From contig NZ_CP031598.1 of assembly GCF_008728195.1 (NCBI RefSeq), positions 3,224,001-3,288,000 of the forward strand: a stretch of 64,000 bases of DNA. The letters run 5' to 3'. This document shows, piece by piece, positions 50,909-64,000 of the stretch. The notes under the pieces were generated by a model. That model was not told the origin of the DNA. It searched no databases and worked only from the letters and a program-made list of their open reading frames with translations. A program made the translations under genes and the position numbers. Within the stretch, counting starts at the first letter, position 1; every line of letters starts with the position of its first letter. This DNA comes from Roseovarius indicus (lineage in GTDB: Bacteria > Pseudomonadota > Alphaproteobacteria > Rhodobacterales > Rhodobacteraceae).

Positions 50909-51319
50909 CTAGCCCTCGCAGGCCCCCGCGGGCCAAAGCCGGAAACTGTCGCCGTTCCCCGTCAACACCACGTCCCCGCCAGCAACAAGCGCCTTTCGTT
51001 CCCTCAGCCGCGCGGGCACGGCAAGCCTGCCCCGGCTGTCGAGCGTGACGAGATGGGTTTGGCATCGGTACCGTCGGGAGAGGATCCGACGCGCGTACGA
51101 GGACCTTGGAAGCGCCGTGATTTTGCTGTCGATCGCCTCCATCGCGGCCATGGTGAAACATGGCAGGAACGGATCGTCTCCGCCGTATACGAAAACGCCC
51201 GCGACGCCTTTGTCGGCCTCCGGGTCCTGCGCCGCCAGGATCGCCCGAAAGGCCCGCGGAAGGCAGAGCCGCCCATGAGCGTCGAGCCGTCTGCGATAGT
51301 CTCCGGTAAAGCCCGTCAT
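50909..51319 (-). CDS. mraZ: MraZ-like transcriptional regulator
   Basis: 136 residues with two SpoVT/AbrB-type half-domains, the layout of MraZ: DAHGRLCLPRAFRAIL near the N-terminus and DSRGRLAVPARLRE in the second half. MraZ normally controls the division and cell-wall cluster and lies in front of rsmH (mraW). Here no rsmH or fts/mur genes are near; a secreted-protein gene follows. It may be a relocated copy or a paralogue. Start at 51319 (MTGFTGDYRRRLDAHG) by family fit. Confidence 0.82.
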   Translation of the reverse strand: MTGFTGDYRRRLDAHGRLCLPRAFRAILAAQDPEADKGVAGVFVYGGDDPFLPCFTMAAMEAIDSKITALPRSSYARRILSRRYRCQTHLVTLDSRGRLAVPARLRERKALVAGGDVVLTGNGDSFRLWPAGACEG

Positions 51320-51368
51320 GCTCTCGCTTTCGATAAAGTGGGACCGCACCCCGCCATGCCCGACGGTC

Positions 51369-52148
51369 TCAGCCAATCTCGCCCGCCTCCACCATCTGAC
51401 GGTACAAATGCCACGTCCCGTGCCCCAGCAGCGGCAGCACGAAAAACAGCCCCAGGAACCCCGGGATCATCGCCACGAAGGTCAGCCCCGCCACGATCAC
51501 CGCCCAGGCCAGCATCGGCCCGGGCGCGCGCAGCACGCTCTGGAACGAGGTGATCATGGCGGTGACGAAATCCACCTCGCGGTCCAGCAGCAGCGGCAGG
51601 GAAATCACCGTGATCATGTAGAGGAGCAGCGCGAAGGCCGCCCCCACCACCGTGCCGAAGCCCAGCATCGAAAGCCCCTCGCCGGTGAAGTAGATCTCGA
51701 GCGAGGTCGAGACGTTTGTCATGGTCGAGAACCCGAGGAAGAGCGCAAAGATCATGTGGGCGAGGAAGAACCAGAACAGGAACATGATGATGATCACCGC
51801 GCAGATCGACGGCAGTTGCCGCCGCCTCTGGTGGGCGATGACCCCGAAGATCTCGGACGGATCCAGCGGTTCGCCCGCGCTCAGCCGGTGGCTGACCTCG
51901 TAGAGCCCCACCGCCGCGAAGGGCCCGATCAGGGGAAAGCCCACGGCCGCGAAGATGAGCCAGTAGCTTTGCCCGGTGATCCATGTGACCCAGGCCATGA
52001 TCCAGCCGATCGCCACGTAGACGCCTGCGAATATGACGGCATAGCCCGGCGCGCGGCGCATGTCGCCCCAGCCCCGGCGCAGGGCCGTGCCCAGCATGTC
52101 GAAGCGCGCCGCGCCCATCGGCGGCACCCCGAGCGGTTTTTCCTGCAT
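51369..52148 (-). CDS. DUF2189 integral membrane protein
   Basis: 259 residues with about six membrane helices in two similar halves; segments such as LRRGWGDMRRAPGYAVIFAG, GFPLIGPFAAVGLYEVS and LLLDREVDFVTAMITSF are typical of DUF2189. The function is unknown. Start at 52148 (MQEKPLGVPPMG) with a GAGGGAGGA-type site upstream. It lies between the amidase and mraZ-like genes on the same strand. Confidence 0.88.
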   Translation of the reverse strand: MQEKPLGVPPMGAARFDMLGTALRRGWGDMRRAPGYAVIFAGVYVAIGWIMAWVTWITGQSYWLIFAAVGFPLIGPFAAVGLYEVSHRLSAGEPLDPSEIFGVIAHQRRRQLPSICAVIIIMFLFWFFLAHMIFALFLGFSTMTNVSTSLEIYFTGEGLSMLGFGTVVGAAFALLLYMITVISLPLLLDREVDFVTAMITSFQSVLRAPGPMLAWAVIVAGLTFVAMIPGFLGLFFVLPLLGHGTWHLYRQMVEAGEIG

Positions 52149-52215: not shown

Positions 52216-53628
52216 TCAGCTTAGCAGCGGCGGGCGCGCCCGGGGCCAGTCGGTCGCCCGGTGATAGGCCTCGGCCATCTCGAGCAGCATGGCATCGGTG
52301 CCGGGCGCGCCGATCAGCTGCACGCCCATGGGCAGCCCCGCCGCGCCGAACCCGGCCGGGATGGCCACGACAGGCAGGCCCAGAAGGCTGGCGGGGATCG
52401 TGACCTCCATCCAGCGGTGATAGGTATCCATCTGCGTGCCGGCGATCTCTTTCGGCCAGTCGATATCGGCCGGGAAAGGCCAGGCCTGGGCGGTGGGAAG
52501 CGCCAGCACGTCATGGGTTTCGAAGAGCGTCATCGCCTCGCGGTACCAGTCGGAGCGGATCAGGCTGGCCCGGTGCACGTCGAGCGCCGAAAGCGCCCGG
52601 CCCTGCTCGATCTCCCACAGGGCGGCGGGCTTCAGTTGCCCGGCGGTCGCCGGGTCGTCGAGGAGCGGGCCAAGATCGGCGGCGTTGCTCCACGAGCGCA
52701 GGGTGATCCAGCTTTGCCAGAGCGCATCGCGGTCGAAGGGTGCGGCCGTGGCATCCACCCCGGCCCCGGCGGCATCCAGCACGCCCAGCGCGCTTTCGCA
52801 AAGGGCGAGGATGCCCTCTTCCATCGGCCAGGCGCCGCCCCAGTCGCGCAGCCAGGCGATGCGCCGGCCCCGGGCCCGGGGCTCGGGCGTGCCGCAGGGC
52901 GCGGCATCGCGGGTCATGGGCTGCATCCGCTCGGCCCCCGACATGACGTCGAGCTGCAGCGCCAGGTCGGCCGGGCAACGCGCCATCGGCCCCAGCGTCG
53001 ACAGCCGGTGCAGGTAGAGCTCGCCGCCGCCGCCCGAGGGCACGCGGCCCCAGCTGGGGCGCATGCCGTAGACGTTGTTCCAGCCCGCCGGGTTGCGCAG
53101 GCTGCCCATCATGTCGGAGCCGTCGGCCAGCGTCAGCATGCCCGCCGCCAGCGCCACCGCCGCCCCGCCCGACGAGCCGCCACAGGTGCGGTCGAGCGCA
53201 TAGGGGTTGCGGGTGGTGCCATGCACCGGGTTGTAGGTGTGGCTGCCCAGCCCGAATTCCGGCGTATTGGTCTTGCCGATGAAGATCGCGCCGGCGGCGC
53301 GCAGCCGGGCCACGTGGGGGTCGTCGGCCTCGGCCACCTGCCCCGCGAAGGCGGGCGAGCCCATGCTGGTGGGCAGGCCCCGCACGTTGGCGAGGTCCTT
53401 GATGGCGATGGGCAGGCCGTGAAGCGGGCCGGCCGGCGTGGCGCAATCGGCGGCGCGGGCCTCGGCCAGCAGCTCCTCGCTCGCGCGCAGCGACACGATG
53501 GCATTCACCGCCCCGTTCACCGCGCCGATCCGGTCGAGCGTGGCTTCCATCAGCGTTTCGGCCGTCAGTCGGCCGCGGGCGATCGCCGCGGCCTGTTCGG
53601 CCGCACTCAGGGTCAGGCAGGTTTCCAT
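52216..53628 (-). CDS. Amidase (amidase signature family)
   Basis: 470 residues. The Ser-Ser-Lys triad is visible: Lys in PIAIKDLANVRG, the Gly/Ser run CGGSSGGAAVALAAGM, and the second Ser in DGSDMMGSLRNPAG. The substrate cannot be read; neighbours give no clue. Start at 53628 (METCLTLSAAEQAA) is family-like. It ends just before the tandem fibre-gene array on the other strand. Confidence 0.93.
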   Translation of the reverse strand: METCLTLSAAEQAAAIARGRLTAETLMEATLDRIGAVNGAVNAIVSLRASEELLAEARAADCATPAGPLHGLPIAIKDLANVRGLPTSMGSPAFAGQVAEADDPHVARLRAAGAIFIGKTNTPEFGLGSHTYNPVHGTTRNPYALDRTCGGSSGGAAVALAAGMLTLADGSDMMGSLRNPAGWNNVYGMRPSWGRVPSGGGGELYLHRLSTLGPMARCPADLALQLDVMSGAERMQPMTRDAAPCGTPEPRARGRRIAWLRDWGGAWPMEEGILALCESALGVLDAAGAGVDATAAPFDRDALWQSWITLRSWSNAADLGPLLDDPATAGQLKPAALWEIEQGRALSALDVHRASLIRSDWYREAMTLFETHDVLALPTAQAWPFPADIDWPKEIAGTQMDTYHRWMEVTIPASLLGLPVVAIPAGFGAAGLPMGVQLIGAPGTDAMLLEMAEAYHRATDWPRARPPLLS

Positions 53629-53803
53629 GCGGTCTATCTGGACCGGGGCCCGGGCCTGGTGCAAGGCCATTTTCCCAACGCCGGCTGCATGAGCTGCACC
53701 GCCCCCCCGAAACGCGAAATTGCGCTTTGAATCAGACCCGGCTAGCCTCGCGGCAGAAGAAAACTTTCATTGACGTCGATTTCATTTTCAAAGGGGCATC
53801 CCC

Positions 53804-54889
53804 ATGAAACACCATGTATTGCGCAGCGCGGTCGGCCTGATCGCCCTGGCCGGCACCGCCGAGGCGGACGATCTGTTCAAGGAAAACGTTGTCATCCAGG
53901 GCAATCTCTGCACCGGGCCGGCCTGCCTCGAGACCGAGACCTTCTCGGGCGCGACGCCGATCAAGATCAAGGGCGCCTCGATCGGGCTGAAACTCGAGGA
54001 TACGGGCGGCTCGAGCACCAATGACTGGGACATTCTCGCCAACGCCGCCTTCGAGGACAGCTTCAACATCCGCGATGCGACGGCGAGCACGGTGCCGTTC
54101 AAGATCCTCGGCGGGGCGCAGACCAATGCCCTCGTGATCGACGACAACGGACGGATCGGGCTCAACACACAGATGCCGGAAGAAAGCCTGCATATCAGTG
54201 CCATTGCCCCGGCCCTGCGTCTGGAAGATACGCTCGGCTCGCCCGGTGTCTGGGATGTTCAGGCCAACGGTAGCAGGTTCTTCATCCGCGACGAGGTGGC
54301 CGAAACCGCACCGCTGATACTCGACGCGGCGGCGCCGACCTTTTCCTTCGTGGTTCGGGAAAGCGGGTTTGTCGGTCTTGGCACGAATGACCCCGACGCC
54401 CCGCTCGAGGTGTTCGGCGAGGACACGTTCAACTTCTTCCGCATCACCGCCGACGGGGCCGCAACCAACCAATCGGTCGATTTCGTCTTCACCGAGGGCC
54501 CGCTGGGCACGGGCGAGCTGCGCTACAACATCGTCGACAGTGACGGGCCCGAGATGCGCCTGAACGCCGATGGCGACATGGTGCTCGACGGTACGCTGAC
54601 CACCGGCGGGCCCACCTGCGCGGGCGGCTGCGACGCGGTGTTCAATGCCGGGTTCGAGCGGCTCTCGGTCTCTGACCATGCCGCCCTGATGTGGGAGAAG
54701 GGCCATCTTCCGGCGGTGGGCCCCACCCTGCCCAATGCACCGATGAACGTATCGGAGAAGATGGGCGCCATGCTCAACGAGCTGGAACATGCCCATATCT
54801 ACATCGAACAGCTTCATGACGAGGCCCGCGCCCGCGATGCGATCATCGCCGATCTCTTGGCCCGGCTCGAGGCGGTCGAGGCGCGCTGA
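53804..54889 (+). CDS. Tandem fibre-like secreted protein, copy 1 (tail type I)
   Basis: 361 residues. Signal peptide about 1-22 (cut near AEA|DD). Cap motif LCTGPAC (Cys36, Cys41). Module 1 (about 53-131) ends NGRIGLNTQMPEESLHI; module 2 (135-203) ends GFVGLGTNDPDAPLEV. The conserved core (208-280) holds GPLGTGELRYNIVDSDGPE, NADGDM and TCAGGCDAVF (Cys272, Cys276). The tail (284-338) reads RLSVSDHAALMWEKGHLPAV and NELEHAHIYIEQLH; a short coiled coil ends LLARLEAVEAR. It resembles the C-terminal parts of trimeric tail-fibre/S74-type proteins. AAGGGG precedes the ATG. First of the array; function not known. Confidence 0.85.
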   Translation: MKHHVLRSAVGLIALAGTAEADDLFKENVVIQGNLCTGPACLETETFSGATPIKIKGASIGLKLEDTGGSSTNDWDILANAAFEDSFNIRDATASTVPFKILGGAQTNALVIDDNGRIGLNTQMPEESLHISAIAPALRLEDTLGSPGVWDVQANGSRFFIRDEVAETAPLILDAAAPTFSFVVRESGFVGLGTNDPDAPLEVFGEDTFNFFRITADGAATNQSVDFVFTEGPLGTGELRYNIVDSDGPEMRLNADGDMVLDGTLTTGGPTCAGGCDAVFNAGFERLSVSDHAALMWEKGHLPAVGPTLPNAPMNVSEKMGAMLNELEHAHIYIEQLHDEARARDAIIADLLARLEAVEAR

Positions 54890-55054
54890 CGCGCCCGGCA
54901 TTCAGCAAACGGAGAAAGACCCGAGGCACAGGCACACATGGCCCGAAGGCACGACCGCTACACGCGTGAAAGGCGAGTAAAGCCTTGCCATGTTACCGGT
55001 ATTGGTTACGCTCTCTTCGAATAGTCCAAACATTTTCATTTTACGGAGTTCCCC

Positions 55055-56188
55055 ATGGCCCGCATCCTTCCCGCAATCCTGATGGCCGGCCTGCTGCCCA
55101 CCCCCGCGCTGACCCAGACCCTTCTCAACGGCGATCACTCGATCGCCGGCGACCTCTGCGTCGGGGGCCGATGTACGGATAACGAGAGCCTCCCTACCGG
55201 ACCACTGCACCTCAAGCAGGACATGCTCAGCATACGTGCCTATGACACCTCGGACTTGATCGGCTTTGCGTCCAATGACTGGGTGCTGCGTTTCAACGAG
55301 TCCGGCCAGGGAGGCCAGTCGTTTTTCGCGGTCCATGACGAAACCGCCGGCCTCACGCCGTTCCGCGTCGATGCCGGTGCGCCCGAGAACGCCCTGCGGG
55401 TCGACGCCACGGGCAATATCGGGATCGGCACGGGTCTGCCCCTCGTCAACCTGCATATCTACGACAGCGACGGCGCGGGCATCCTTATGGAGGACAACGC
55501 CTGGCAGTGGTTTGTGACAGGGACGCAGGACGCGTTCGTGCTGTTCGAGCCGCAATCGCCCGCGATCCCGTTCCAGATCAGAAGCGGCGCCCCGGATGCC
55601 TCGATCCATGTCGCGGCGAACGGCAATGTGGGGCTTGGCACCCACGCGCCCGGCGCGCCGCTCGAAGTCGTCAACAACTCGACCTTCAGCTACTTCCGCC
55701 TCACGGCGCGGCAGGCCGCGGTGAACCGCTCGGTCGACGTCACCTTCACCGGCGGCCCGCTCGGCACGGGCGAACTGCGCTACAACATCGTCGACGGTGA
55801 CGGGCCGGAGATGAAGCTCAACGCCAATGGCGACATGGAGATCGGCGGCACGCTCATCACGGGCGGGCCCACTTGCGCCAGCGGCCGCGACGCGGTGTTC
55901 AATGCCGCGTTCGAGCGCCATTCGGTGACGGATCACGCCGCGCTGATGTGGGAGAACGGCCACCTGCCGGCCGTGGGACCCACCCTGCAGGGCCAGCCCA
56001 TGAACGTCTCCGAGAAGATGGGCGCGATGCTCAACGAGCTGGAGCACGCCCATATCTACATCGAAGAGTTGCATGGCGAAAACGCCGCCCTCTCGGCCGA
56101 AGTCGCCGCCGAACGGGCGCTGAACGCCGCGCAGGCCGACCAGATCGCCGCCCTCAGCGCCCGGCTCGACGCGCTGGAGGGCAACTGA
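55055..56188 (+). CDS. Tandem fibre-like secreted protein, copy 2 (tail type I)
   Basis: 377 residues. Signal peptide about 1-20 (MARILPAILMAGLLPTPALT). Cap LCVGGRC (Cys35, Cys40). Modules end GNIGIGTGLPLVNLHI and GNVGLGTHAPGAPLEV. The core is close to copy 1, but the second Cys pair is broken: TCASGRDAVF has Arg278 (codon CGC at 55886-55888, one base from TGC). Tail RHSVTDHAALMWENGHLPAV is type I. The C-terminal coiled coil is longer than in copy 1 (about 340-377, AALSAEVAAERAL). A 165-base gap separates it from copy 1 and may contain its own promoter. Confidence 0.85.
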   Translation: MARILPAILMAGLLPTPALTQTLLNGDHSIAGDLCVGGRCTDNESLPTGPLHLKQDMLSIRAYDTSDLIGFASNDWVLRFNESGQGGQSFFAVHDETAGLTPFRVDAGAPENALRVDATGNIGIGTGLPLVNLHIYDSDGAGILMEDNAWQWFVTGTQDAFVLFEPQSPAIPFQIRSGAPDASIHVAANGNVGLGTHAPGAPLEVVNNSTFSYFRLTARQAAVNRSVDVTFTGGPLGTGELRYNIVDGDGPEMKLNANGDMEIGGTLITGGPTCASGRDAVFNAAFERHSVTDHAALMWENGHLPAVGPTLQGQPMNVSEKMGAMLNELEHAHIYIEELHGENAALSAEVAAERALNAAQADQIAALSARLDALEGN

Positions 56189-56241
56189 CTTCCACGCGCT
56201 CCCGCCGGCATGGGCCCATTTCAACCAAGGATATTGATTTC

Positions 56242-57384
56242 ATGAAGAGACGACTGACAGCAATCGGCCTTCTTGCTCTGGCCCTGCCGGCCACGGCGCA
56301 TTCCGACGAGGTCGTACCCACCGACCTGATCGTCACCGGGAATATCTGCACCGGGGGCAGCCTCTGCGTCGATGGCGAGAGTTTCGGCACCACCGACCTC
56401 CGGATCAAGGGCACGATCCCCGAGATCCAGTTTTTCGACACGACCACCGGCGACAGCACGTGGACCGTCAGCGTCGACAATCCGATGTCTGGCCTCGCCA
56501 ACGGCTTCACCATCAAGAACGAGACGAACCTGAGCTATCCTTTCCGGATAGAGGAAAATGCCCCGGACTCTGCCTTCTTCATCGGAGAAACCGGCCGTAT
56601 CGGGCTCGGCACCGTTATTCCGAGGGCCGACATCCACGTGGCCGGCGGGAACCTCGTCACCCTCAGGCTCGAGGATACCAGCGGCACCACGCGCGCGTGG
56701 GACTTCAACGCCTCCAGCACCGCCTTCTGGATCAGGGACCACACCTCCGACACGGTCCCGATGGCGATCGAGGCCGGCGCGCCGAACAATACGCTGTGGC
56801 TCGAGGACACCGGCAATGTCGGGATCGGCACCTTCACGCCCGGGGCCCCGCTCGAGGTCAGCAACGACGACACGTTCAGCTATTTCCGCATCTCCGCCAC
56901 CCAGGCCGCGATCAACCAGTCGGTCGACGTCACCTTTACCGGCGGCCCGCTCGGCACCGGCGAGCTGCGCTACAATATCGTCGACGGCGACGGGCCCGAG
57001 ATGAAGCTCAACGCCGATGGCGACATCGAGATCGGCGGCACGCTGACAACCGCGGGCTCCTGTTCGGTCGGTTGCGACGCGGTGTTCGAGGACGCTTACG
57101 ACCTGCCCAGCATCGAGGATCACCACGCCCGGACGCTGGCCTTGGGCCACCTGCCCAACGTGGGCCCGACCCGGGATGGCGAGCCGTGGGACGTGACCGA
57201 CAAGATGGGGCGGATGCTCAACGAGCTGGAGCACGCGCATCTCTTCATCGCCGGCCAGCAGCAACGGATCACCCGCCAGCAGGAGGAACTTGCCGCCCAG
57301 CGCGCCGAGCTTGACGAGACCCGCGCCGCCCTGGCGGCGCTCACCGCCCGGCTCGACCGTATCGACCAGACCGGCCAACCATAA
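56242..57384 (+). CDS. Tandem fibre-like secreted protein, copy 3 (tail type II)
   Basis: 380 residues. Signal peptide about 1-21 (MKRRLTAIGLLALALPATAH). The cap has one extra residue between its cysteines (ICTGGSLC, Cys36 and Cys42). Modules end GRIGLGTVIPRADIHV and GNVGIGTFTPGAPLEV. The core carries TAGSCSVGCDAVF in place of TGGPTC..GC. The tail is type II: YDLPSIEDHHARTLALGHLP, VTDKMGRMLNELEHAHLFIA. The C-terminal coiled coil is the longest (about 340-378, rich in Gln/Glu/Arg). The start at 56242 follows copy 2 by 53 bases with AAGGA upstream. Confidence 0.85.
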   Translation: MKRRLTAIGLLALALPATAHSDEVVPTDLIVTGNICTGGSLCVDGESFGTTDLRIKGTIPEIQFFDTTTGDSTWTVSVDNPMSGLANGFTIKNETNLSYPFRIEENAPDSAFFIGETGRIGLGTVIPRADIHVAGGNLVTLRLEDTSGTTRAWDFNASSTAFWIRDHTSDTVPMAIEAGAPNNTLWLEDTGNVGIGTFTPGAPLEVSNDDTFSYFRISATQAAINQSVDVTFTGGPLGTGELRYNIVDGDGPEMKLNADGDIEIGGTLTTAGSCSVGCDAVFEDAYDLPSIEDHHARTLALGHLPNVGPTRDGEPWDVTDKMGRMLNELEHAHLFIAGQQQRITRQQEELAAQRAELDETRAALAALTARLDRIDQTGQP

Positions 57385-57440
57385 GGAGTCCGCCTCGCGC
57401 CCTCCCCGCGGCCGGTTCACAGCCAGAAGGGAGAAGACAC

Positions 57441-58559
57441 ATGAAAGCCCACCACGCCGCCGCCCTCATCCTGATGCTGACGGCCCCGGCCCTTCGCGCG
57501 CAGACGGTCCTGCCCGGCGACCACAATGTGCAAGGCAATCTCTGTGTCGGAAGCCAATGCGCCGCCGAGACTTTCGGAGACGACACGCTTCGGCTCAAGG
57601 CATACAACATCCGCATCCATGTCGATGACCGGACCACCAATGCCGATTATTCGGGCCACGACTGGTCGCTGCTGTTCAACGACACCACCCAGTTCGGCGA
57701 GGATTACTTCGCCGTGCAGGATAGGACCCTCATGACCGTCCCCTTCCGGATCGACGGCTTCGCCCCTACCGACTCGTTCCGGATCGCGGGCAGCGGCAAG
57801 ATCGGCATCGGCACGGGCCTGCCTCAGCAGGACCTGCACATCGTCTCGAACGGCGGTACCGCCGTGATCCGGATGGAGGAAGCGGTGGGCACGGCGTCGC
57901 GCTGGGATATCGAGGCCAACAGCGCCGCCTTCGTCATCCAGGACGCGCTGGCCGGAACCATCCCCGTCGCCATCGAAAAGGGGTCGCCCTCCTACGCGTT
58001 CCGGGTGCTGAATTCCGGCAACGTCGGGTTTGGCACCAACAGCCCGCAGGCCCCGCTGGAGCTTTTCCGGCGAGAGCCGTTCACCTTCCTCCGGCTCACC
58101 GCCGCCGGGGCAACGATCAACGACTCGGTCGATATCGTCTTTACCGAAGGGCCGCTGGGCACCGGTGAGCTGCGTTACAACATCGTCGATGGCGACGGGC
58201 CGGAAATGCGTCTGAACGCCGATGGCGATATCCGGATCGACGGCACGCTGACCACCGCGGGCTCCTGTTCGGTCGGGTGCGACGCGGTGTTCGAGGCCGA
58301 TTACGACCTGCCCTCGATCGAGGAGCACCACGCCCGCACAATGGCCCTCGGCCACCTGCCCAACGTGGGCCCGACCCGCGATGGCGAGCCGTGGGACGTG
58401 ACCGACAAGATGGGTCGCATGCTCAACGAACTGGAACACGCGCATCTCTATATCGCCCAGCTGGAGGCACGCGACCGGACGCGGGCCGAGGAGACGGCCC
58501 GGATGGGCGCGCGCATCGCCCGGCTCGAGGCGATGGTGGCCGAGCTGGCGGCCCATTGA
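57441..58559 (+). CDS. Tandem fibre-like secreted protein, copy 4 (tail type II)
   Basis: 372 residues. Signal peptide about 1-20 (MKAHHAAALILMLTAPALRA). Cap LCVGSQC (Cys35, Cys40). Modules end GKIGIGTGLPQQDLHI and GNVGFGTNSPQAPLEL. Core GPLGTGELRYNIVDGDGPEM and TAGSCSVGCDAVF. Tail type II (YDLPSIEEHHARTMALGHLP), nearly identical to copy 3, so the two form a recent pair. The coiled coil ends RLEAMVAELAAH. GAAGGGAGAAG precedes the ATG; 56 bases follow copy 3. Confidence 0.85.
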   Translation: MKAHHAAALILMLTAPALRAQTVLPGDHNVQGNLCVGSQCAAETFGDDTLRLKAYNIRIHVDDRTTNADYSGHDWSLLFNDTTQFGEDYFAVQDRTLMTVPFRIDGFAPTDSFRIAGSGKIGIGTGLPQQDLHIVSNGGTAVIRMEEAVGTASRWDIEANSAAFVIQDALAGTIPVAIEKGSPSYAFRVLNSGNVGFGTNSPQAPLELFRREPFTFLRLTAAGATINDSVDIVFTEGPLGTGELRYNIVDGDGPEMRLNADGDIRIDGTLTTAGSCSVGCDAVFEADYDLPSIEEHHARTMALGHLPNVGPTRDGEPWDVTDKMGRMLNELEHAHLYIAQLEARDRTRAEETARMGARIARLEAMVAELAAH

Positions 58560-58592
58560 GGGGCCACGACCCTGATTGAAGGAGTTTGATCG

Positions 58593-59786
58593 ATGACCTA
58601 TTCCCGTATCCCCCTTGCGCTGCTGGCTTTCCTCGCCCTTCCATACGCCGCTGCGGCCGAGGTTCTCAGCACCAGCGACCCGACGATCGAAAACAGTCTC
58701 TGCGTCGGTCGGGATTGCGGCGACCCCGCCGACTTCGTGACCACACATGACGAGATCGTACTGTCGGCCAACAACATACGATTGCGGTTCGAGGACACCT
58801 CGGACCCCGGCGGAAACAATGCCAGCGACGACTGGGCGCTGGTCCCCAACGACAACCTTCCGGGCGGGCAAAACCGGTTCATTCTGCGCAATCTGACCCA
58901 TCACACCGACCCTTTCGTCGTCCACGGCGATGCCCCGACCAGCGCCGCCTATATCTCGGCCACCGGCCGCATCGGCATCGGCACCATGCTGCCGCAGGAA
59001 AGGATGCACATGGTCAGTGCCATCGGCCCCGGCCTTCGGTTCGAACAGACGGGCAACGGGCTGTTTCAGCCGCAAACCTGGACGATGCGCGGGCAGACCG
59101 CCTTCTATGTCAGCGACATCACCGCCGGCACCACGCCCTTCCGGATCAATCGGGCGGCGCCCGACAACACGCTGGTCGTCGATGACACGGGCAATGTCGG
59201 CATCGGCACCTTGACCCCCGGAGCACCGCTCGAGGTGCTGGATGACGAAACCTTCAGCTTCTTCCGCATCACCGCCGCGAGTGCCGCGATCAACCAGTCG
59301 GTCGACATCACCTTCACCCAAGGCCCGTTGGGCACGGGCGAGCTGCGCTACAACATCGTCGACGGCGACGGGCCCGAGATGCGCCTCAACGCCGATGGCG
59401 ACATGGTGCTCGACGGTACCCTGACCACCGGCGGGCCTACCTGCTCAGGCGGCTGCGACGCGGTCTTCACCAAAGCTCAGATCATCCCGGAACGCGACTA
59501 CGCCGCCCGGATGTGGGCCGACGGCCACCTGCCCCATGTCGGCCCGACCCCGCCCGAGGCGCCGATCAACGTCAGCGAAAAACTGGGCGGGATGTTGAAC
59601 GCGCTGGAACATGCGCATGTGTTCATCGACCGGCAGAACCGGCGCATCGAAACGCTCGAGGCAGAGAGGGCGGCGCAGGATGCGCGGTTCGCCCGGCTCG
59701 AGGCGGAGAAATCCGCACAGGCCGCGCGGCTGGCCCGGCTCGAGGCGCGGCTCACCGCCATCGAAACGGGCGCGTGGGCGGACTGA
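58593..59786 (+). CDS. Tandem fibre-like secreted protein, copy 5 (tail type III)
   Basis: 397 residues. Signal peptide about 1-22 (ending AAAAE). Cap LCVGRDC (Cys37, Cys42). Modules end GRIGIGTMLPQERMHM and GNVGIGTLTPGAPLEV. Core GPLGTGELRYNIVDGDGPEM and TCSGGCDAVF. Tail type III: QIIPERDYAARMWADGHLPH, NVSEKLGGMLNALEHAHVFI. The coiled coil contains repeated RLEAE/RLEAR units (about 355-392). AAGGAG precedes the ATG; only 33 bases separate it from copy 4, so copies 3-5 are probably one transcript. Confidence 0.85.
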   Translation: MTYSRIPLALLAFLALPYAAAAEVLSTSDPTIENSLCVGRDCGDPADFVTTHDEIVLSANNIRLRFEDTSDPGGNNASDDWALVPNDNLPGGQNRFILRNLTHHTDPFVVHGDAPTSAAYISATGRIGIGTMLPQERMHMVSAIGPGLRFEQTGNGLFQPQTWTMRGQTAFYVSDITAGTTPFRINRAAPDNTLVVDDTGNVGIGTLTPGAPLEVLDDETFSFFRITAASAAINQSVDITFTQGPLGTGELRYNIVDGDGPEMRLNADGDMVLDGTLTTGGPTCSGGCDAVFTKAQIIPERDYAARMWADGHLPHVGPTPPEAPINVSEKLGGMLNALEHAHVFIDRQNRRIETLEAERAAQDARFARLEAEKSAQAARLARLEARLTAIETGAWAD

Positions 59787-59909
59787 ACCGGCACACGGGC
59801 GGCGGAGCCGGTCAAAAAGGGGGCCCGGCGCGCCAATTTCGTTTGAGCCGACGCGGTCATACGCGTACCTTCGCCCGGAATTTTTTCAATTATCCAAAGG
59901 GAATTGCCA

Positions 59910-61040
59910 ATGCTCCGCCTTCATTCCGCCCTCCGCCTGCTCGCCATCGCCAGCGTCTTTCCCGCCGCCACCCATGCCCAGACCCTCCTGTCCGGCGATC
60001 ACAGCGTCGATGGCGCTCTCTGCGTTGGCGAAGGTTGTAGCAGCAGCGAGGACTTCGAGGACTTCGCCCTGAAGATCAAGCAGAACAACACATGGCTGAA
60101 ATTCGAGGATACTTCTTCAACCTCTAGCTTTCCCACCAATGACTGGCAGATCAGGGTGAACGACTCGTTGAACGGTGGCGCCGGCCATTTCTCGATCGTC
60201 GATGACGAAACCGGCAACACGATCCTCCGCCTCGACGCGGGCGCATTGAACGCCTCCCTCCATGTCGCCAGCAGCGGCCATGTCGGCCTGGGCACGACGA
60301 TACCGACTGACGAGCTGCACATCTTCGACAGTCTCGATCCGAGCATCACCTTCGAGGAGTCGTCCTGGAAATGGAAGCTGGCGGGCAATGTCGAAGGCTT
60401 CTACCTGTTGGACCCGCAGAACTCTGCCATCCCCTTCGAAATTCGCAGCGGGGCGCCGGCGCGGGCCTTCCACATCAACAGCGAGGGCCAGGTCGGCCTT
60501 GGCACCGATACGCCCGATGCGCCGCTCGAAGTCAGCGACGCGGACAGTTTCAGCTTCTTCCGCATCACCGCCCGGGGCGCGCCGGTCAACCAGTCTGTCG
60601 ATGTCGTCTTCACGCAAGGCCCTCTGAACACGGGCGAGCTGCGCTACAACATCGTCGACGGCGACGGGCCCGAGATGCGGCTCAATGCCGATGGCGACCT
60701 GGTGATCCGCGGCACGCTCACCACCGGCGGGCCGACCTGCGCGGGCGGCTGCGACGCGGTCTTCACCGAGCGCCGGATCATCCCCGAAGACGATTACGCC
60801 GCCCGGATGTGGGCCGACGGTCACCTGCCTTTCGTCGGCCCGACCGCCCCGGAGGCGCCGATCAACGTCAGCGAGAAGATGGGCGGGATGCTGAACGCGC
60901 TGGAGCACGCCCACGTGTTCATCGAGCGCCAGAACGAGCGCATCGCGACGCTCGAGGCGGAAAAGGCGGCACAGGACGACCGGATGGCCCAACTCGAAGC
61001 GCGGCTGATGGCGCTGGAAACGGGCCGCGGCGCGGATTGA
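59910..61040 (+). CDS. Tandem fibre-like secreted protein, copy 6 (tail type III)
   Basis: 376 residues from ATG 59910 (AAAGGG upstream; an in-frame TTG lies six bases earlier). Signal peptide about 1-23 (ending ATHA|Q). Cap LCVGEGC (Cys38, Cys43). Modules end GHVGLGTTIPTDELHI and GQVGLGTDTPDAPLEV. The core has GPLNTGELRYNIVD, where Asn replaces the usual Gly. Tail type III (RIIPEDDYAARMWADGHLPF). The coiled coil contains LEAEKAAQD. The 123-base gap before it may hold a promoter; its leader CCAAAGGGAATTGCC is shared in part with copy 7. Confidence 0.85.
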   Translation: MLRLHSALRLLAIASVFPAATHAQTLLSGDHSVDGALCVGEGCSSSEDFEDFALKIKQNNTWLKFEDTSSTSSFPTNDWQIRVNDSLNGGAGHFSIVDDETGNTILRLDAGALNASLHVASSGHVGLGTTIPTDELHIFDSLDPSITFEESSWKWKLAGNVEGFYLLDPQNSAIPFEIRSGAPARAFHINSEGQVGLGTDTPDAPLEVSDADSFSFFRITARGAPVNQSVDVVFTQGPLNTGELRYNIVDGDGPEMRLNADGDLVIRGTLTTGGPTCAGGCDAVFTERRIIPEDDYAARMWADGHLPFVGPTAPEAPINVSEKMGGMLNALEHAHVFIERQNERIATLEAEKAAQDDRMAQLEARLMALETGRGAD

Positions 61041-61171
61041 GGCCGGACAGGCCGGGGGCAAACGGGGCCGCGCCTCGCAGGGCGGCGCCGCTTATTCACT
61101 TTGATAAATCGACGCCAGAACGCTAGGCTTGTCGGGATTTTATCCAATCGTCACGACCCAAGGAATTGCCC

Positions 61172-62383
61172 ATGACCCGCCTGTTTCCCGCGCTGACCGC
61201 GCCAAGCCGCCTGTCCGCCCTGCCCCTGCTTGCCACGCTGCTGGCCCAGCCGGCCGCGTCGCAGGTGCTCGAGGCATCGAGCGACGCCACCATCCGCAAC
61301 CGTCTTTGCATCGGCGGAGAATGCACAGACAACCCCACGCCCGATTTCGTCGCCGACGGCTTCACCGCGTCGCTCGAGATCCGCGATTTCCGAACACGGA
61401 TAGATTTCGTCGACCGTTCGGACGCAAACTTTCCGAATACGAACTGGGCGATCGAGTTGAACGAACCGAATACCTCCATCCCCAGTGGCGGCACCGAGTA
61501 TTTCGCCATCCAGGACAACTCTGCCTTCACGGTCCCCTTTCTGGTCAGGGGAGGCGCGCCCACCAACGCCTTCTTTCTCGCCGAGTCAGGGGCCATCGGC
61601 CTGCAGACATCCCTGCCGCAGATGAACCTGCATATCGTCGACGCGGGCACTTTTGCCGAGGCTGGCATCCGATTGGAGGACACCACGGGAACACCGTACA
61701 GCTGGGACCTGCGGGGCAATGACGCCGGGTTCTACCTGTTCGATGTGACGGCCAACAGGCTGCCCTTCCAGGTCCGTCCCGGTGCGCCCAGCTCTTCGCT
61801 CGAGATCGCCAGCAGCGGCTTTGTGGGCATCGGCACCGAAAGCCCCGGCGCGCCCCTCGAGGTCAGCAACAACGACACGTTCAGCTACTTCCGCATCACC
61901 GCCGCGCAGGCCGCGGTCAACCAGTCGGCCGACATGACCTTCACCGGCGGGCCCCTGGGCACCGGCGAGTTCCGCTACAACATCGTCGATGGCGACGGGC
62001 CGGAAATGCGGCTCAATGCCGATGGCGACATGGTGCTCGATGGCACGCTGACCACCGGCGGCCCGACCCCCGCAGGCGGCTGCGACGCCGTCTTCGACGC
62101 GGAATTCGAGCGCCTCTCCGTCTCCGATCACGCCACGCTGATGTGGGAGAACGGCCACCTGCCCGCCGTGGGTGCGACGCTGCCGGGCGCGCCGATCAAC
62201 GTGTCGGAGAAGATGGGCGGGATCCTGAACGAGCTTGAGCACGCGCATATCTACATCGAAGAGCTGCACGCCCGGCTGGCCTTCCAGGAAGAGCAGCGCC
62301 AGGCACAGGAGGCGGTCAATATCGCGCTTTCCGAACAGCTCGCGGCCCTCGCGGCCCGGCTCGAAAAGCTGGAGGTCCGTTGA
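61172..62383 (+). CDS. Tandem fibre-like secreted protein, copy 7 (tail type I)
   Basis: 403 residues from ATG 61172 (AAGGAA upstream), the longest copy. Signal peptide about 1-30 (ending PAAS|Q). Cap LCIGGEC (Cys46, Cys51). Modules end GAIGLQTSLPQMNLHI and GFVGIGTESPGAPLEV. The first Cys of the core pair is lost: GGPTPAGGCDAVF (Pro codon 62069-62071). Core variant GPLGTGEFRYNIVD. Tail type I (RLSVSDHATLMWENGHLPAV). Coiled coil about 365-402 ending LAARLEKLEVR. The 131-base gap upstream could carry a promoter. Confidence 0.85.
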   Translation: MTRLFPALTAPSRLSALPLLATLLAQPAASQVLEASSDATIRNRLCIGGECTDNPTPDFVADGFTASLEIRDFRTRIDFVDRSDANFPNTNWAIELNEPNTSIPSGGTEYFAIQDNSAFTVPFLVRGGAPTNAFFLAESGAIGLQTSLPQMNLHIVDAGTFAEAGIRLEDTTGTPYSWDLRGNDAGFYLFDVTANRLPFQVRPGAPSSSLEIASSGFVGIGTESPGAPLEVSNNDTFSYFRITAAQAAVNQSADMTFTGGPLGTGEFRYNIVDGDGPEMRLNADGDMVLDGTLTTGGPTPAGGCDAVFDAEFERLSVSDHATLMWENGHLPAVGATLPGAPINVSEKMGGILNELEHAHIYIEELHARLAFQEEQRQAQEAVNIALSEQLAALAARLEKLEVR

Positions 62384-62466
62384 CGCAAGGCGGGCCCTGG
62401 CTTACAAAAATCCTTTATTAACCAATGACGTTGCCCGCGTGCAGCGCTTGAACAAAGGATTTCAGT

Positions 62467-63627
62467 ATGAAGGTTTTTCCGCTCTGCGCCGCACTTGTCG
62501 TCGCGGCCTTTCCTGTCACGGCCGAACAGGTCTTCAACGAGAATGTCATCGTCGGCGGCGGCCTGTGCGCCGGTAATTACTGCCAGGCCGGCACCAGCTT
62601 TCCCGAGGGGCTGCTGCGGCTCAGCACCCAGTCGCCGCGCATCCATTTCAACGACGCCTCGGCCGTCAATCAGCACGAATGGCAGATCCGCGCCAACGAG
62701 GACAGCAGCAGCTATCTCAGCATGTTCTCGATCCTCGACCTGACCGCGGCCACCACGCCCTTCACCCTGTTCGGCGGTGCGCCGGACAACGCGCTCTGGG
62801 TCGACGGCCATGGGCTGGTGGGCCTCGGCACATCGCTGCCCCAGCAGGATCTGCACATCGTGGCGTCGGGCAACTACCCCGGCATAAGGCTGGAGCGTAC
62901 ACAGGCCCCAGCCCATTCATGGGACATCCTGGCCGATCAGACAGGGTTCGGCATCCGGGATGTGACCAGCAACAACAAGCTGCCGTTCTTCATCGCCAGC
63001 GATGCGCCCCCCTGGGCGATCTGGCTCGACAGCGCCGGCTATCTCGGGCTCGGAACGGATGACCCCGCCGCGCCGCTGGAACTGCGGCGCGAGGACAGCT
63101 TCAACTTCTTCCGCATCACCGCCGCCGGCGCGACGTTCAACGAGTCGGTGGATTTCGTATTCACCGAGGGCCCGCTCGGCACCGGAGAACTGCGCTACAA
63201 CATCGTCGATACCGACGGACCCGAGATGCGGCTGAACGCCGATGGCGACATGCGGATCGAGGGCGCGCTGACCACCGGCGGCCCCGCCTGCGACAGCGGC
63301 TGCGACGCGGTGTTCGACGCCGGGTTCGAGCGCCTCTCGGTCTCCGACCATGCCGCGCTCATGTGGGAGAACGGCCACCTTCCGGCGGTCGGCCCCACCC
63401 TGCCGGGGGCACCGATGAACGTGTCGGAGAAGGTGGCCGGCATCCTGAACGAACTCGAGCATGCGCATATCTATATCGAAACCCTCCACCGACGGGCCGC
63501 AGCACAGGAAGACCAACTTGCCCGTCAGGCCGAACAGCTGGTCGCGCAGGGTGCGGCCCTTGCCCAGCAGCAGGCGCTTACCGCCCGGCTGATGGCCCGG
63601 CTGGACCAGCTTGAACAGGGCAGCTAA
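62467..63627 (+). CDS. Tandem fibre-like secreted protein, copy 8 (tail type I)
   Basis: 386 residues. Signal peptide about 1-19 (MKVFPLCAALVVAAFPVTA). Cap LCAGNYC (Cys34, Cys39). Modules end GLVGLGTSLPQQDLHI and GYLGLGTDDPAAPLEL. Core intact with ACDSGCDAVF. Tail type I (RLSVSDHAALMWENGHLPAV, NVSEKVAGILNELEHAHIYI). The coiled coil is Gln-rich (QLARQAEQLVAQGAALAQQ). AAAGGA precedes the ATG. Confidence 0.85.
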   Translation: MKVFPLCAALVVAAFPVTAEQVFNENVIVGGGLCAGNYCQAGTSFPEGLLRLSTQSPRIHFNDASAVNQHEWQIRANEDSSSYLSMFSILDLTAATTPFTLFGGAPDNALWVDGHGLVGLGTSLPQQDLHIVASGNYPGIRLERTQAPAHSWDILADQTGFGIRDVTSNNKLPFFIASDAPPWAIWLDSAGYLGLGTDDPAAPLELRREDSFNFFRITAAGATFNESVDFVFTEGPLGTGELRYNIVDTDGPEMRLNADGDMRIEGALTTGGPACDSGCDAVFDAGFERLSVSDHAALMWENGHLPAVGPTLPGAPMNVSEKVAGILNELEHAHIYIETLHRRAAAQEDQLARQAEQLVAQGAALAQQQALTARLMARLDQLEQGS

Positions 63628-63755
63628 GCCCCGTCCGGGCAGGCGGACCTTCCGGTTTTCCTCCATGGACGGAGCATCGCGAGCCACTTAACGTATATCA
63701 CATAGCCAACGGGCGACCTCGCCCGGCTTCCCCATAGTTAATAAGGTTGCCCCGA

Positions 63756-64000
63756 ATGTCCTTCATTATCCGTACCGCCTTTCCCCTTGCCATCGCCCTC
63801 GCCGCCGCCCCCGCCTGGGCACAAGACGTCATCGGAGACGACCTGGTCCTCTCCGGCGACATCACCCAGAACGGGTTCGGACCGAATTTCTTCGATGCCG
63901 CGTATTCCTCGTTCAGCGGCAGCATGTGTCTCGGGAACAACTGCACCACCAGCGAAGCCAACGGCCTCGGCAACCCGCCCCTCAAACTCAAATGGTCCGA
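63756..64000 (+). CDS. Tandem fibre-like secreted protein, copy 9, N-terminal part (runs off window)
   Basis: About 81 residues are visible. Signal peptide MSFIIRTAFPLAIALAAAPAWA, then DVIGDDLVLSGDITQNGFGP. The cap motif MCLGNNC (Cys58, Cys63) appears about 20 residues later than in other copies because of an insertion (about residues 35-55). It ends in the PLKLKWS segment that begins module 1 in the family. The frame is open to the window edge. AAGG lies 8 bases before the ATG. Membership rests on the signal peptide, cap and position. Confidence 0.7.
   Translation, partial: MSFIIRTAFPLAIALAAAPAWAQDVIGDDLVLSGDITQNGFGPNFFDAAYSSFSGSMCLGNNCTTSEANGLGNPPLKLKWS

What the first reader, a model, noticed from the sequence alone, without database searches (positions are those of the whole stretch)
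53804..64000. Tandem array of at least nine secreted fibre-like paralogues
Eight complete genes and the start of a ninth lie head to tail on one strand. All share signal peptide, LC-x-G-x(2,3)-C cap, two beta modules ending in a V/I-G-x-G-T-x2-P-x3-LH/E-I/V pattern, a near-invariant core (GPLGTGELRYNIVD) and a tail resembling S74/tail-fibre C-terminal parts. The middles vary strongly while the C-terminus is fixed. This is what one expects of a repertoire of trimeric ligand-binding or adhesive fibres with a common assembly domain. I know of no described system of this form in Rhodobacterales.
Basis: partly seen in the sequence, partly recalled or inferred. Interest (0 to 1): 0.88.

Follow-up and report, generated by a model that had tools for sequence, protein, structure and literature searches.

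The report
Mosaic array of bacterial fibre genes
A marine Roseovarius bacterium carries 23 side-by-side genes for secreted, fibre-like proteins whose front and back parts appear to have been reshuffled, probably a stock of interchangeable sticky fibres for gripping different surfaces or partners, although nobody has yet tested what they hold.

Summary
Window 53804-63627 holds eight intact paralogues and a ninth starts at 63756. The array continues past the window to 23 intact copies in about 29 kb; no other family member was found in the genome. It sits between an amidase-like gene and prfB, whose matches lie 42 bp apart in two of seven examined congeners without the family.

The nearest solved proteins by sequence are Bdellovibrio mosaic adhesive trimer (MAT) fibres. 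All 23 copies carry two loops like the published MAT capping loop. Two MAT features fail: no S74 protease, and the heads vary while core and tail are shared.

Tail similarity is uncorrelated with head and core similarity, three tail types are scattered through the array, close database relatives differ from single copies in the tail or the head alone, and four of nine heads compared with another Roseovarius have lower synonymous divergence than flanking genes. This points to recombination through the conserved core.

Elsewhere in Rhodobacterales the family goes with a type II secretion system (28 of 30 carriers, 50 of 360 non-carriers). This genome lacks it and its companion genes, so the export route is open.

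Best reading: a repertoire of secreted adhesive fibres. Trimer, surface location and ligand are inferred.

The parts
53804..54889 (+). fibre paralogue 1 (361 aa, tail type A)
55055..56188 (+). fibre paralogue 2 (377 aa, tail type A; the second tail Cys is Arg)
56242..57384 (+). fibre paralogue 3 (380 aa, tail type B)
57441..58559 (+). fibre paralogue 4 (372 aa, tail type B)
58593..59786 (+). fibre paralogue 5 (397 aa, tail type C)
59910..61040 (+). fibre paralogue 6 (376 aa, tail type C)
61172..62383 (+). fibre paralogue 7 (403 aa, tail type A)
62467..63627 (+). fibre paralogue 8 (386 aa, tail type A)
63756..64000 (+). start of fibre paralogue 9; it ends outside the window at window-equivalent 64964, and paralogues 10-23 follow to 83122
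52216..53670 (-). amidase-like gene (name by eye, not scanned) that marks the left flank of the insertion site; a prfB-like gene marks the right flank outside the window

Best explanation
The array is a repertoire of 23 secreted, fibre-like, probably homotrimeric adhesins that work like the Bdellovibrio mosaic adhesive trimers. Each chain leaves the cytoplasm by a Sec signal peptide. A small two-cysteine cap and two variable beta modules, each closed by a MAT-type capping loop, form the head. A near-invariant core and a tail with a C-terminal coiled coil form the common assembly end. The surface of the second beta module, between the two capping loops, is the likeliest binding cleft, and different heads bind different ligands. 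The conserved core doubles as a site of homologous recombination: crossovers there join heads to new tails, add or remove copies, and let heads pass between strains and species. Shown here: the array, open copies, the motif, the lack of correlation between tail and head, dN/dS below 1 in shared heads, the syntenic site. Inferred: export, trimer, surface location, binding cleft, ligand class (glycans of algae or of neighbouring bacteria), and the recombination mechanism.
Confidence: 0.6

Rival explanations
1. The proteins are cargo or surface parts of a dedicated type II secretion apparatus, working with the Sel1-repeat, 140-aa companion and ArsP/FG-GAP/UnbV proteins as a surface structure, and the window's array is a remnant or derivative that lost the machine. 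This does not exclude the best explanation; it differs on the export route and on what the fibre is part of.
For: T2SSG occurs in 28 of 30 family-bearing and 50 of 360 other Rhodobacterales genomes (Fisher p 9e-20, relatedness not corrected); in 24 of the 28 a listed family match lies within 6 kb of it, in 22 of these at 4.0-4.8 kb. 22 of 56 fetched loci carry Gsp genes, 31 the companion, 29 the FG-GAP protein. The Mameliella cluster is GspM, L, K, J, G, a prepilin peptidase, two Sel1 proteins, companion, fibre, ArsP_1/FG-GAP/UnbV protein (GspL is below its curated cut-offs). Plasmid pMME07001 of Roseovarius faecimaris carries the T2SS with several family copies.
Against: The genome with the most copies among the congeners scored has none of these partners, yet its copies are open and the shared heads have dN/dS below 1. 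G451 holds an array at the same site, away from its T2SS locus. 21 of 56 loci show none of the Gsp, companion or FG-GAP genes (some loci are cut by contig ends).
Confidence: 0.45
2. Structural, non-adhesive surface fibres or S-layer-like matrix, with the variation due to phage or predator pressure: the variable heads hide the cell rather than bind a target.
For: Heads diversify while the assembly end is shared; differences confined to head or tail between close relatives are what such pressure could also select.
Against: Low dN/dS in shared heads (0.04-0.35 in six of nine pairs) suggests conserved specificity of each head rather than escape.
Confidence: 0.2
3. Domesticated phage tail-fibre genes (a prophage remnant or tailocin fibre bank).
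For: Weak PHROG tail-fibre matches (best E 3.9e-7 among the 5 of 8 window copies scanned).
Against: Every copy has a signal-peptide-like N-terminus by a simple scan; by eye no phage structural genes stand beside the array in the ORF lists (not scanned with a phage library); with copy 2 as query only 3 of 50,697 phage records match, at E 8e-4 to 9e-4 with at most 33.3% identity.
Confidence: 0.05

Closest known systems
Mosaic adhesive trimer (MAT) fibres of Bdellovibrio bacteriovorus (PMC10769870; outline with abstract, passages, and sections 10, 11, 12 and 16 read)
   Same: Secreted beta-rich fibre-like proteins in about 20 paralogues (21 there, 23 here), capping loops of the same pattern, signs of exchange of ends, best sequence matches in the PDB.
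   Different: MATs are typically about 1,000 aa, have a conserved N-terminal domain of about 130 aa and a variable C-terminal tip, and 13 of 21 end in S74. Here the proteins are 361-425 aa, the head is variable, the C-terminal core and tail are shared, no S74 was found, and all 23 genes are one tandem array in a genus not known to me as predatory (recalled).
Phage tail fibres (T4 gp34, T5 and Mu fibres; PHROG 18345 and 9942)
   Same: Weak sequence and structural resemblance of the beta modules.
   Different: Signal-peptide-like start, no phage context seen, cellular paralogue array.
S74 (chaperone of endosialidase) fibre proteins
   Same: Capping-loop pattern shared with S74-type beta-helices.
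   Different: No SDxxxK motif and no Pfam S74 match.
T2SS-linked fibre gene clusters of Rhodobacterales (named here from the loci; no description found in print)
   Same: Relatives of this family are genetically linked to a T2SS.
   Different: No T2SSG or GspK match in this genome.

Membership tests
Bdellovibrio MAT superfamily | signal peptide | tested here: met
   Hydrophobic N-terminus with an AxA-like site in 23 of 23 by a simple hydropathy and pattern scan; no dedicated predictor was run.
Bdellovibrio MAT superfamily | capping loop V-G-G/N-pi-x-x-P-x-x-x-L | tested here: met
   Two loops in 23 of 23 with a relaxed pattern of mine; the strict pattern V/I-G-x-G/N-T-x-x-P-x-x-x-L occurs 35 times in the 23 copies (two each would give 46; copies 20 and 22 have none); shuffled mean 0.11 and 0.005 in total.
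Bdellovibrio MAT superfamily | sequence homology to solved MATs | tested here: met
   8ond E 8.2e-12, 8ojn 1.3e-4, 8oml 1.7e-3 with the 8-row profile; the matched parts are mainly the loop repeats.
Bdellovibrio MAT superfamily | trimeric beta-helix | tested here: inconclusive
Bdellovibrio MAT superfamily | conserved N-terminal domain with a diversified C-terminal tip | tested here: not met
   Mean pairwise identity is 32% in the cap, 42% in M1 and 38% in M2, but 77% in the core and 68% in the tail: the polarity is reversed.
Bdellovibrio MAT superfamily | display on the cell surface | not testable with these tools
   Needs labelling or proteomics.
S74 peptidase fibres | SDxxxK catalytic motif | tested here: not met
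   0 of 23 copies; no Pfam S74 hit in the 7 of 8 window copies scanned.
Trimeric autotransporters | C-terminal YadA-type membrane anchor | tested here: not met
   No anchor family in Pfam for the 7 of 8 window copies scanned; the model of copy 1 ends in a long helix; no 19-residue stretch past residue 40 exceeds the hydropathy threshold of 1.6 in 23 copies.
T2SS-linked fibre cluster | T2SS genes in the same genome | tested here: not met
   Own genome: no T2SSG candidates, no GspK match; T2SSG is present in 28 of 30 family-bearing genomes of the order sample.
T2SS-linked fibre cluster | 140-aa companion protein | tested here: not met
   No match in the own genome at E <= 0.001; matches in 7 of 7 other family-bearing congeners and 0 of 6 non-bearing ones tested.

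The most novel reading that the evidence does not exclude
A bacterial cassette bank for fibre specificity. Heads with fixed, conserved specificities are stored in one tandem array, move between strains and species as cassettes, and are re-joined to three tail types and variable coiled coils by recombination in the conserved core. The tail type and the very variable coiled coil (37% mean identity) could act as a homotypic assembly code that stops 23 co-expressed chains from mixing. The array has cut loose from the T2SS locus where its relatives live.
Probability: 0.4. Interest if true: 0.8.

Novelty: new variant of a known kind. Interest (0 to 1): 0.62.

Why it matters
A large chimeric fibre repertoire is described in a predator, where it is read as prey recognition (PMC10769870). 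A 23-gene array with apparently exchangeable heads in a marine roseobacter, and relatives linked to type II secretion across the order, would make fibre repertoires a more general cell-surface strategy. It offers a system, as far as I know harmless (recalled), for asking what such fibres bind, how they cross the outer membrane, and how recombination builds new combinations.

Tried and rejected
Prophage or tailocin bank: little phage similarity with copy 2 as query and signal-peptide-like N-termini. Phase variation by simple repeats: only short or weak tandem repeats, the one score above 50 being a 42-bp unit in the coiled-coil end of copy 5 (window part of the array only). Decayed copies: all 23 are open; head dN/dS is below 1 in the nine pairs examined. 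Recent foreign origin of the whole array: base composition is like the surroundings (window only), a weak argument. Concerted evolution within one genome: core dS within the own array is 0.41, between the two Roseovarius arrays 0.51 and within the other 0.51, so at most a small effect.

Fold comparison: Foldseek against 'pdb' and 'viral' never ran, so only the VIA re-ranking exists; families not listed there are not excluded.

Literature: Roseovarius with tail fiber, tandem and adhesin gave 0 papers; 'mosaic adhesive trimer' gave 3, of which one was read in part (PMC10769870) and two judged from title and start of abstract, all on Bdellovibrio; type II secretion with Rhodobacteraceae and tail fiber gave 1, listing only; Roseobacter with T2SS, plasmid and GspD gave 1 (PMC10090131), three passages seen, no fibres in them; at least three of FG-GAP, UnbV, T2SS and tail fiber domain gave 0. 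Other papers were seen as listings only.

Full report
OBSERVATION. The ORF list and the translated alignment confirm eight open head-to-tail genes between 53804 and 63627 and the start of a ninth at 63756. A profile of the eight finds 25 matches at E <= 1e-3 in the whole genome, all in one stretch of contig C1; two genes were hit in two pieces, so these are 23 genes. I fetched the continuation and read 15 further open genes, copy 9 being the one that starts in the window. The array spans window-equivalent 53804-83122, with gaps of 33-205 bp between genes. Proteins are 361-425 aa. A relaxed two-loop pattern occurs exactly twice in 23 of 23 proteins; shuffled versions of all 23 give 0.11 in total on average.

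ANATOMY. From N to C: a signal-peptide-like start; a short cap with C-x-G-x(2,3)-C (23 of 23); beta module M1 ending in capping loop 1; beta module M2 ending in capping loop 2; a near-invariant core with GPLxTGExRYNxVD (23 of 23); a tail of one of three types (A, B, C, called by a short motif); and a coiled coil. Segment borders were set by me. Mean pairwise identity is 32% (cap), 42% (M1), 38% (M2), 77% (core), 68% (tail) and 37% (coiled coil). Copies 11 and 18 have about 30 extra residues between the loops (spacing 106 and 105 against 70-77 elsewhere). The AF2 model of copy 1 (72-row alignment A3) has mean pLDDT 81.2 and pTM 0.59, beta strands from 35 to 262, a low-confidence joint at 266-279 and a helix from 316 to 360. 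It is a monomer model and says nothing on trimerisation.

MOSAICISM. If whole genes were duplicated and then diverged, similarity in one segment would predict similarity in another. Of 21 segment pairs, five have Mantel p below 0.05 without correction: SP-cap, SP-M1, SP-M2, SP-cc and tail-cc, with r 0.16-0.29. The tail is uncorrelated with SP, cap, M1, M2 and core (r -0.07 to 0.00). The split-half control within segments gives r 0.28-0.49, and 0.86 for the tail, so signal was available in the tail; for M1 (0.28) it is low and the test is weak there. Tail types in array order are AABBCCAAAAABCBABABCAABA. Of the 120 listed database relatives (268 passed the limit), 56 match one of the 23 copies at 75% identity or more, 26 of them at 95% or more, two being the own copies themselves. 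I compared 23 of these by segment. Examples: P0050 versus copy 2 is 96-100% through the core and 53% in the tail; P0030 (named Roseovarius indicus) versus copy 8 is 93-100% through the core, 82% in the tail and 34% in the coiled coil; P0007 (R. indicus) versus copy 14 is 47% in the cap, 75% in M1 and 100% from M2 on. Others differ more evenly (for example P0027, P0054), so not every difference is a clean swap. Their gene positions are not known, so that they are alleles of the same copy is an inference.

COMPARISON WITH A SECOND ARRAY. Roseovarius CCMP836_Bin15 (L058 and L059; by contig places the same genome as G451) has at least 14 copies at the same site: the amidase side lies on one contig and the prfB side on another, with an unread gap between. 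Blocks such as 'end of copy 19 plus copy 20' and 'end of copy 16 plus copy 17' are shared (only matches of 84% or more and 150 bp or more were listed for the array), but the order differs. For nine gene pairs, head dS is 0.11 (copy 20), 0.14 (22), 0.12 (23), 0.15 (17), 0.50 (8), 0.50 (4), 0.64 (3), 0.58 (19) and 0.55 (7); five flanking genes have 0.24-0.40. In copies 20, 22, 23 and 17 the core has dS 0.30-0.56 and the tail 0.32-0.89. Thus four heads look younger than the rest of their own genes and than the flanks, as expected if heads move as cassettes with breakpoints near the core. Head dN/dS is 0.04-0.35 in the six closest pairs and 0.37-0.64 in the other three, which speaks for purifying selection. 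Core dS within the array (0.41) is lower than M1/M2 dS (about 1) but close to the between-species core value (0.51).

SITE. Flanking gene names (amidase, DUF2189, prfB and others) are mine by eye, not from a scan. I looked at prfB in seven congeners without the family. In G031 and G008 the amidase and prfB matches lie 42 bp apart. In G034 they are 827 bp apart. G033 and G027 have DUF2189 next to prfB and no amidase match. G007 and G035 show neither beside prfB. So 2 of 7 show a tight empty site. G003, which has the family elsewhere, has amidase and prfB 1,462 bp apart. The prfB side of L108 and L109 (by contig places G025 and G002) carries a family C-terminus at the contig end.

DISTRIBUTION. 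8 of 79 genomes of the genus sampled, the own one included, have the family. In the order sample it is 30 of 390 genomes, 19 of 139 genera (at most five candidates per genome were scored, so copy counts there are lower bounds). 56 loci were found in genome contigs, mostly Rhodobacterales by title, with Maricaulis, a Nitratireductor MAG, an Acidobacteria MAG and a Saprospiraceae MAG; MAG binning errors were not excluded. With copy 2 as query nine plasmid records match, among them Roseovarius faecimaris pMME07001 (by length and places the 76-kb contig of G003) and a Phaeobacter plasmid from an Emiliania huxleyi culture.

CONTEXT OF RELATIVES. The neighbours of many relatives are constant. In Mameliella (L085): GspM, L (below its cut-offs), K, J and G, a prepilin peptidase, two Sel1 proteins, a 140-aa secreted-looking companion, the fibre, and a 1020-aa ArsP_1/FG-GAP/UnbV protein. 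Over 56 loci: Gsp genes in 22, Sel1 in 26, companion in 31, FG-GAP protein in 29, none of the Gsp, companion or FG-GAP genes in 21 (loci cut by contig ends are included). In the order sample T2SSG is in 28 of 30 family-bearing and 50 of 360 other genomes, Fisher p 9e-20 (relatedness of genomes not corrected); taking for each genome one listed family match, the nearer where I saw several, 24 of the 28 lie within 6 kb. Among 18 congeners T2SSG is in 5 of 8 family-bearing and 1 of 10 others. R. faecimaris pMME07001 carries T2SS genes annotated as GspG, I, J, K, L, M, D, E and F types, a protein N and an A24 peptidase, with several family copies, Sel1 proteins and an FG-GAP protein. This suggests type II secretion as the ancestral export route.

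THE EXCEPTION. The window's genome shows none of it: no T2SSG candidate, no GspK, no FG-GAP partner, no companion. Its one secretin match looks by eye like a Tad-pilus CpaC (not scanned). Two other family-bearing genomes, G025 and G002 (95 and 76% complete), also show no T2SSG, GspK or FG-GAP match but keep the companion. So either the array now uses another route, or the proteins stay in the periplasm. This is the main gap in the adhesin reading.

VERDICT. A real, large, open and mosaic fibre repertoire; a new variant of a known kind. The adhesive role and trimeric state are inferred from MAT-like features; the recombination reading rests on several sequence results, none of which is a direct observation of exchange.

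Noticed in passing
G000 whole genome: The genome with 23 fibre genes shows no match to the T2SSG, GspK, companion and FG-GAP genes that accompany the family elsewhere.
   Followed up: partly
L193/L194 (Roseovarius faecimaris plasmid pMME07001): A 76-kb plasmid with a T2SS, several fibre genes, a LuxR-family regulator between fibre genes, Sel1 proteins and sulfotransferases.
   Followed up: partly
L195 (Phaeobacter sp. G2 plasmid): A 144-aa hypothetical protein at the companion's place, fibre, methyltransferase and FG-GAP protein next to polysaccharide biosynthesis and export genes, from an Emiliania huxleyi culture.
   Followed up: no
window 59654-59747: A 42-bp unit repeated 2.2 times in the coiled-coil end of copy 5, i.e. 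14 codons, two heptads.
   Followed up: no
L104 and L112 (Marimonas arenosa): Family members split over two ORFs, possibly broken copies, in a genome with many dispersed family members.
   Followed up: no
window 50909-51376 (- strand): An MraZ-like ORF (by eye, not scanned) upstream of the amidase-like gene.
   Followed up: no
L067, L076, L084, L105: In Acidobacteria and Saprospiraceae relatives the stop-to-stop ORF runs about 220-315 aa ahead of the family match; one ORF per locus was scanned and no Pfam family reached its cut-off.
   Followed up: partly
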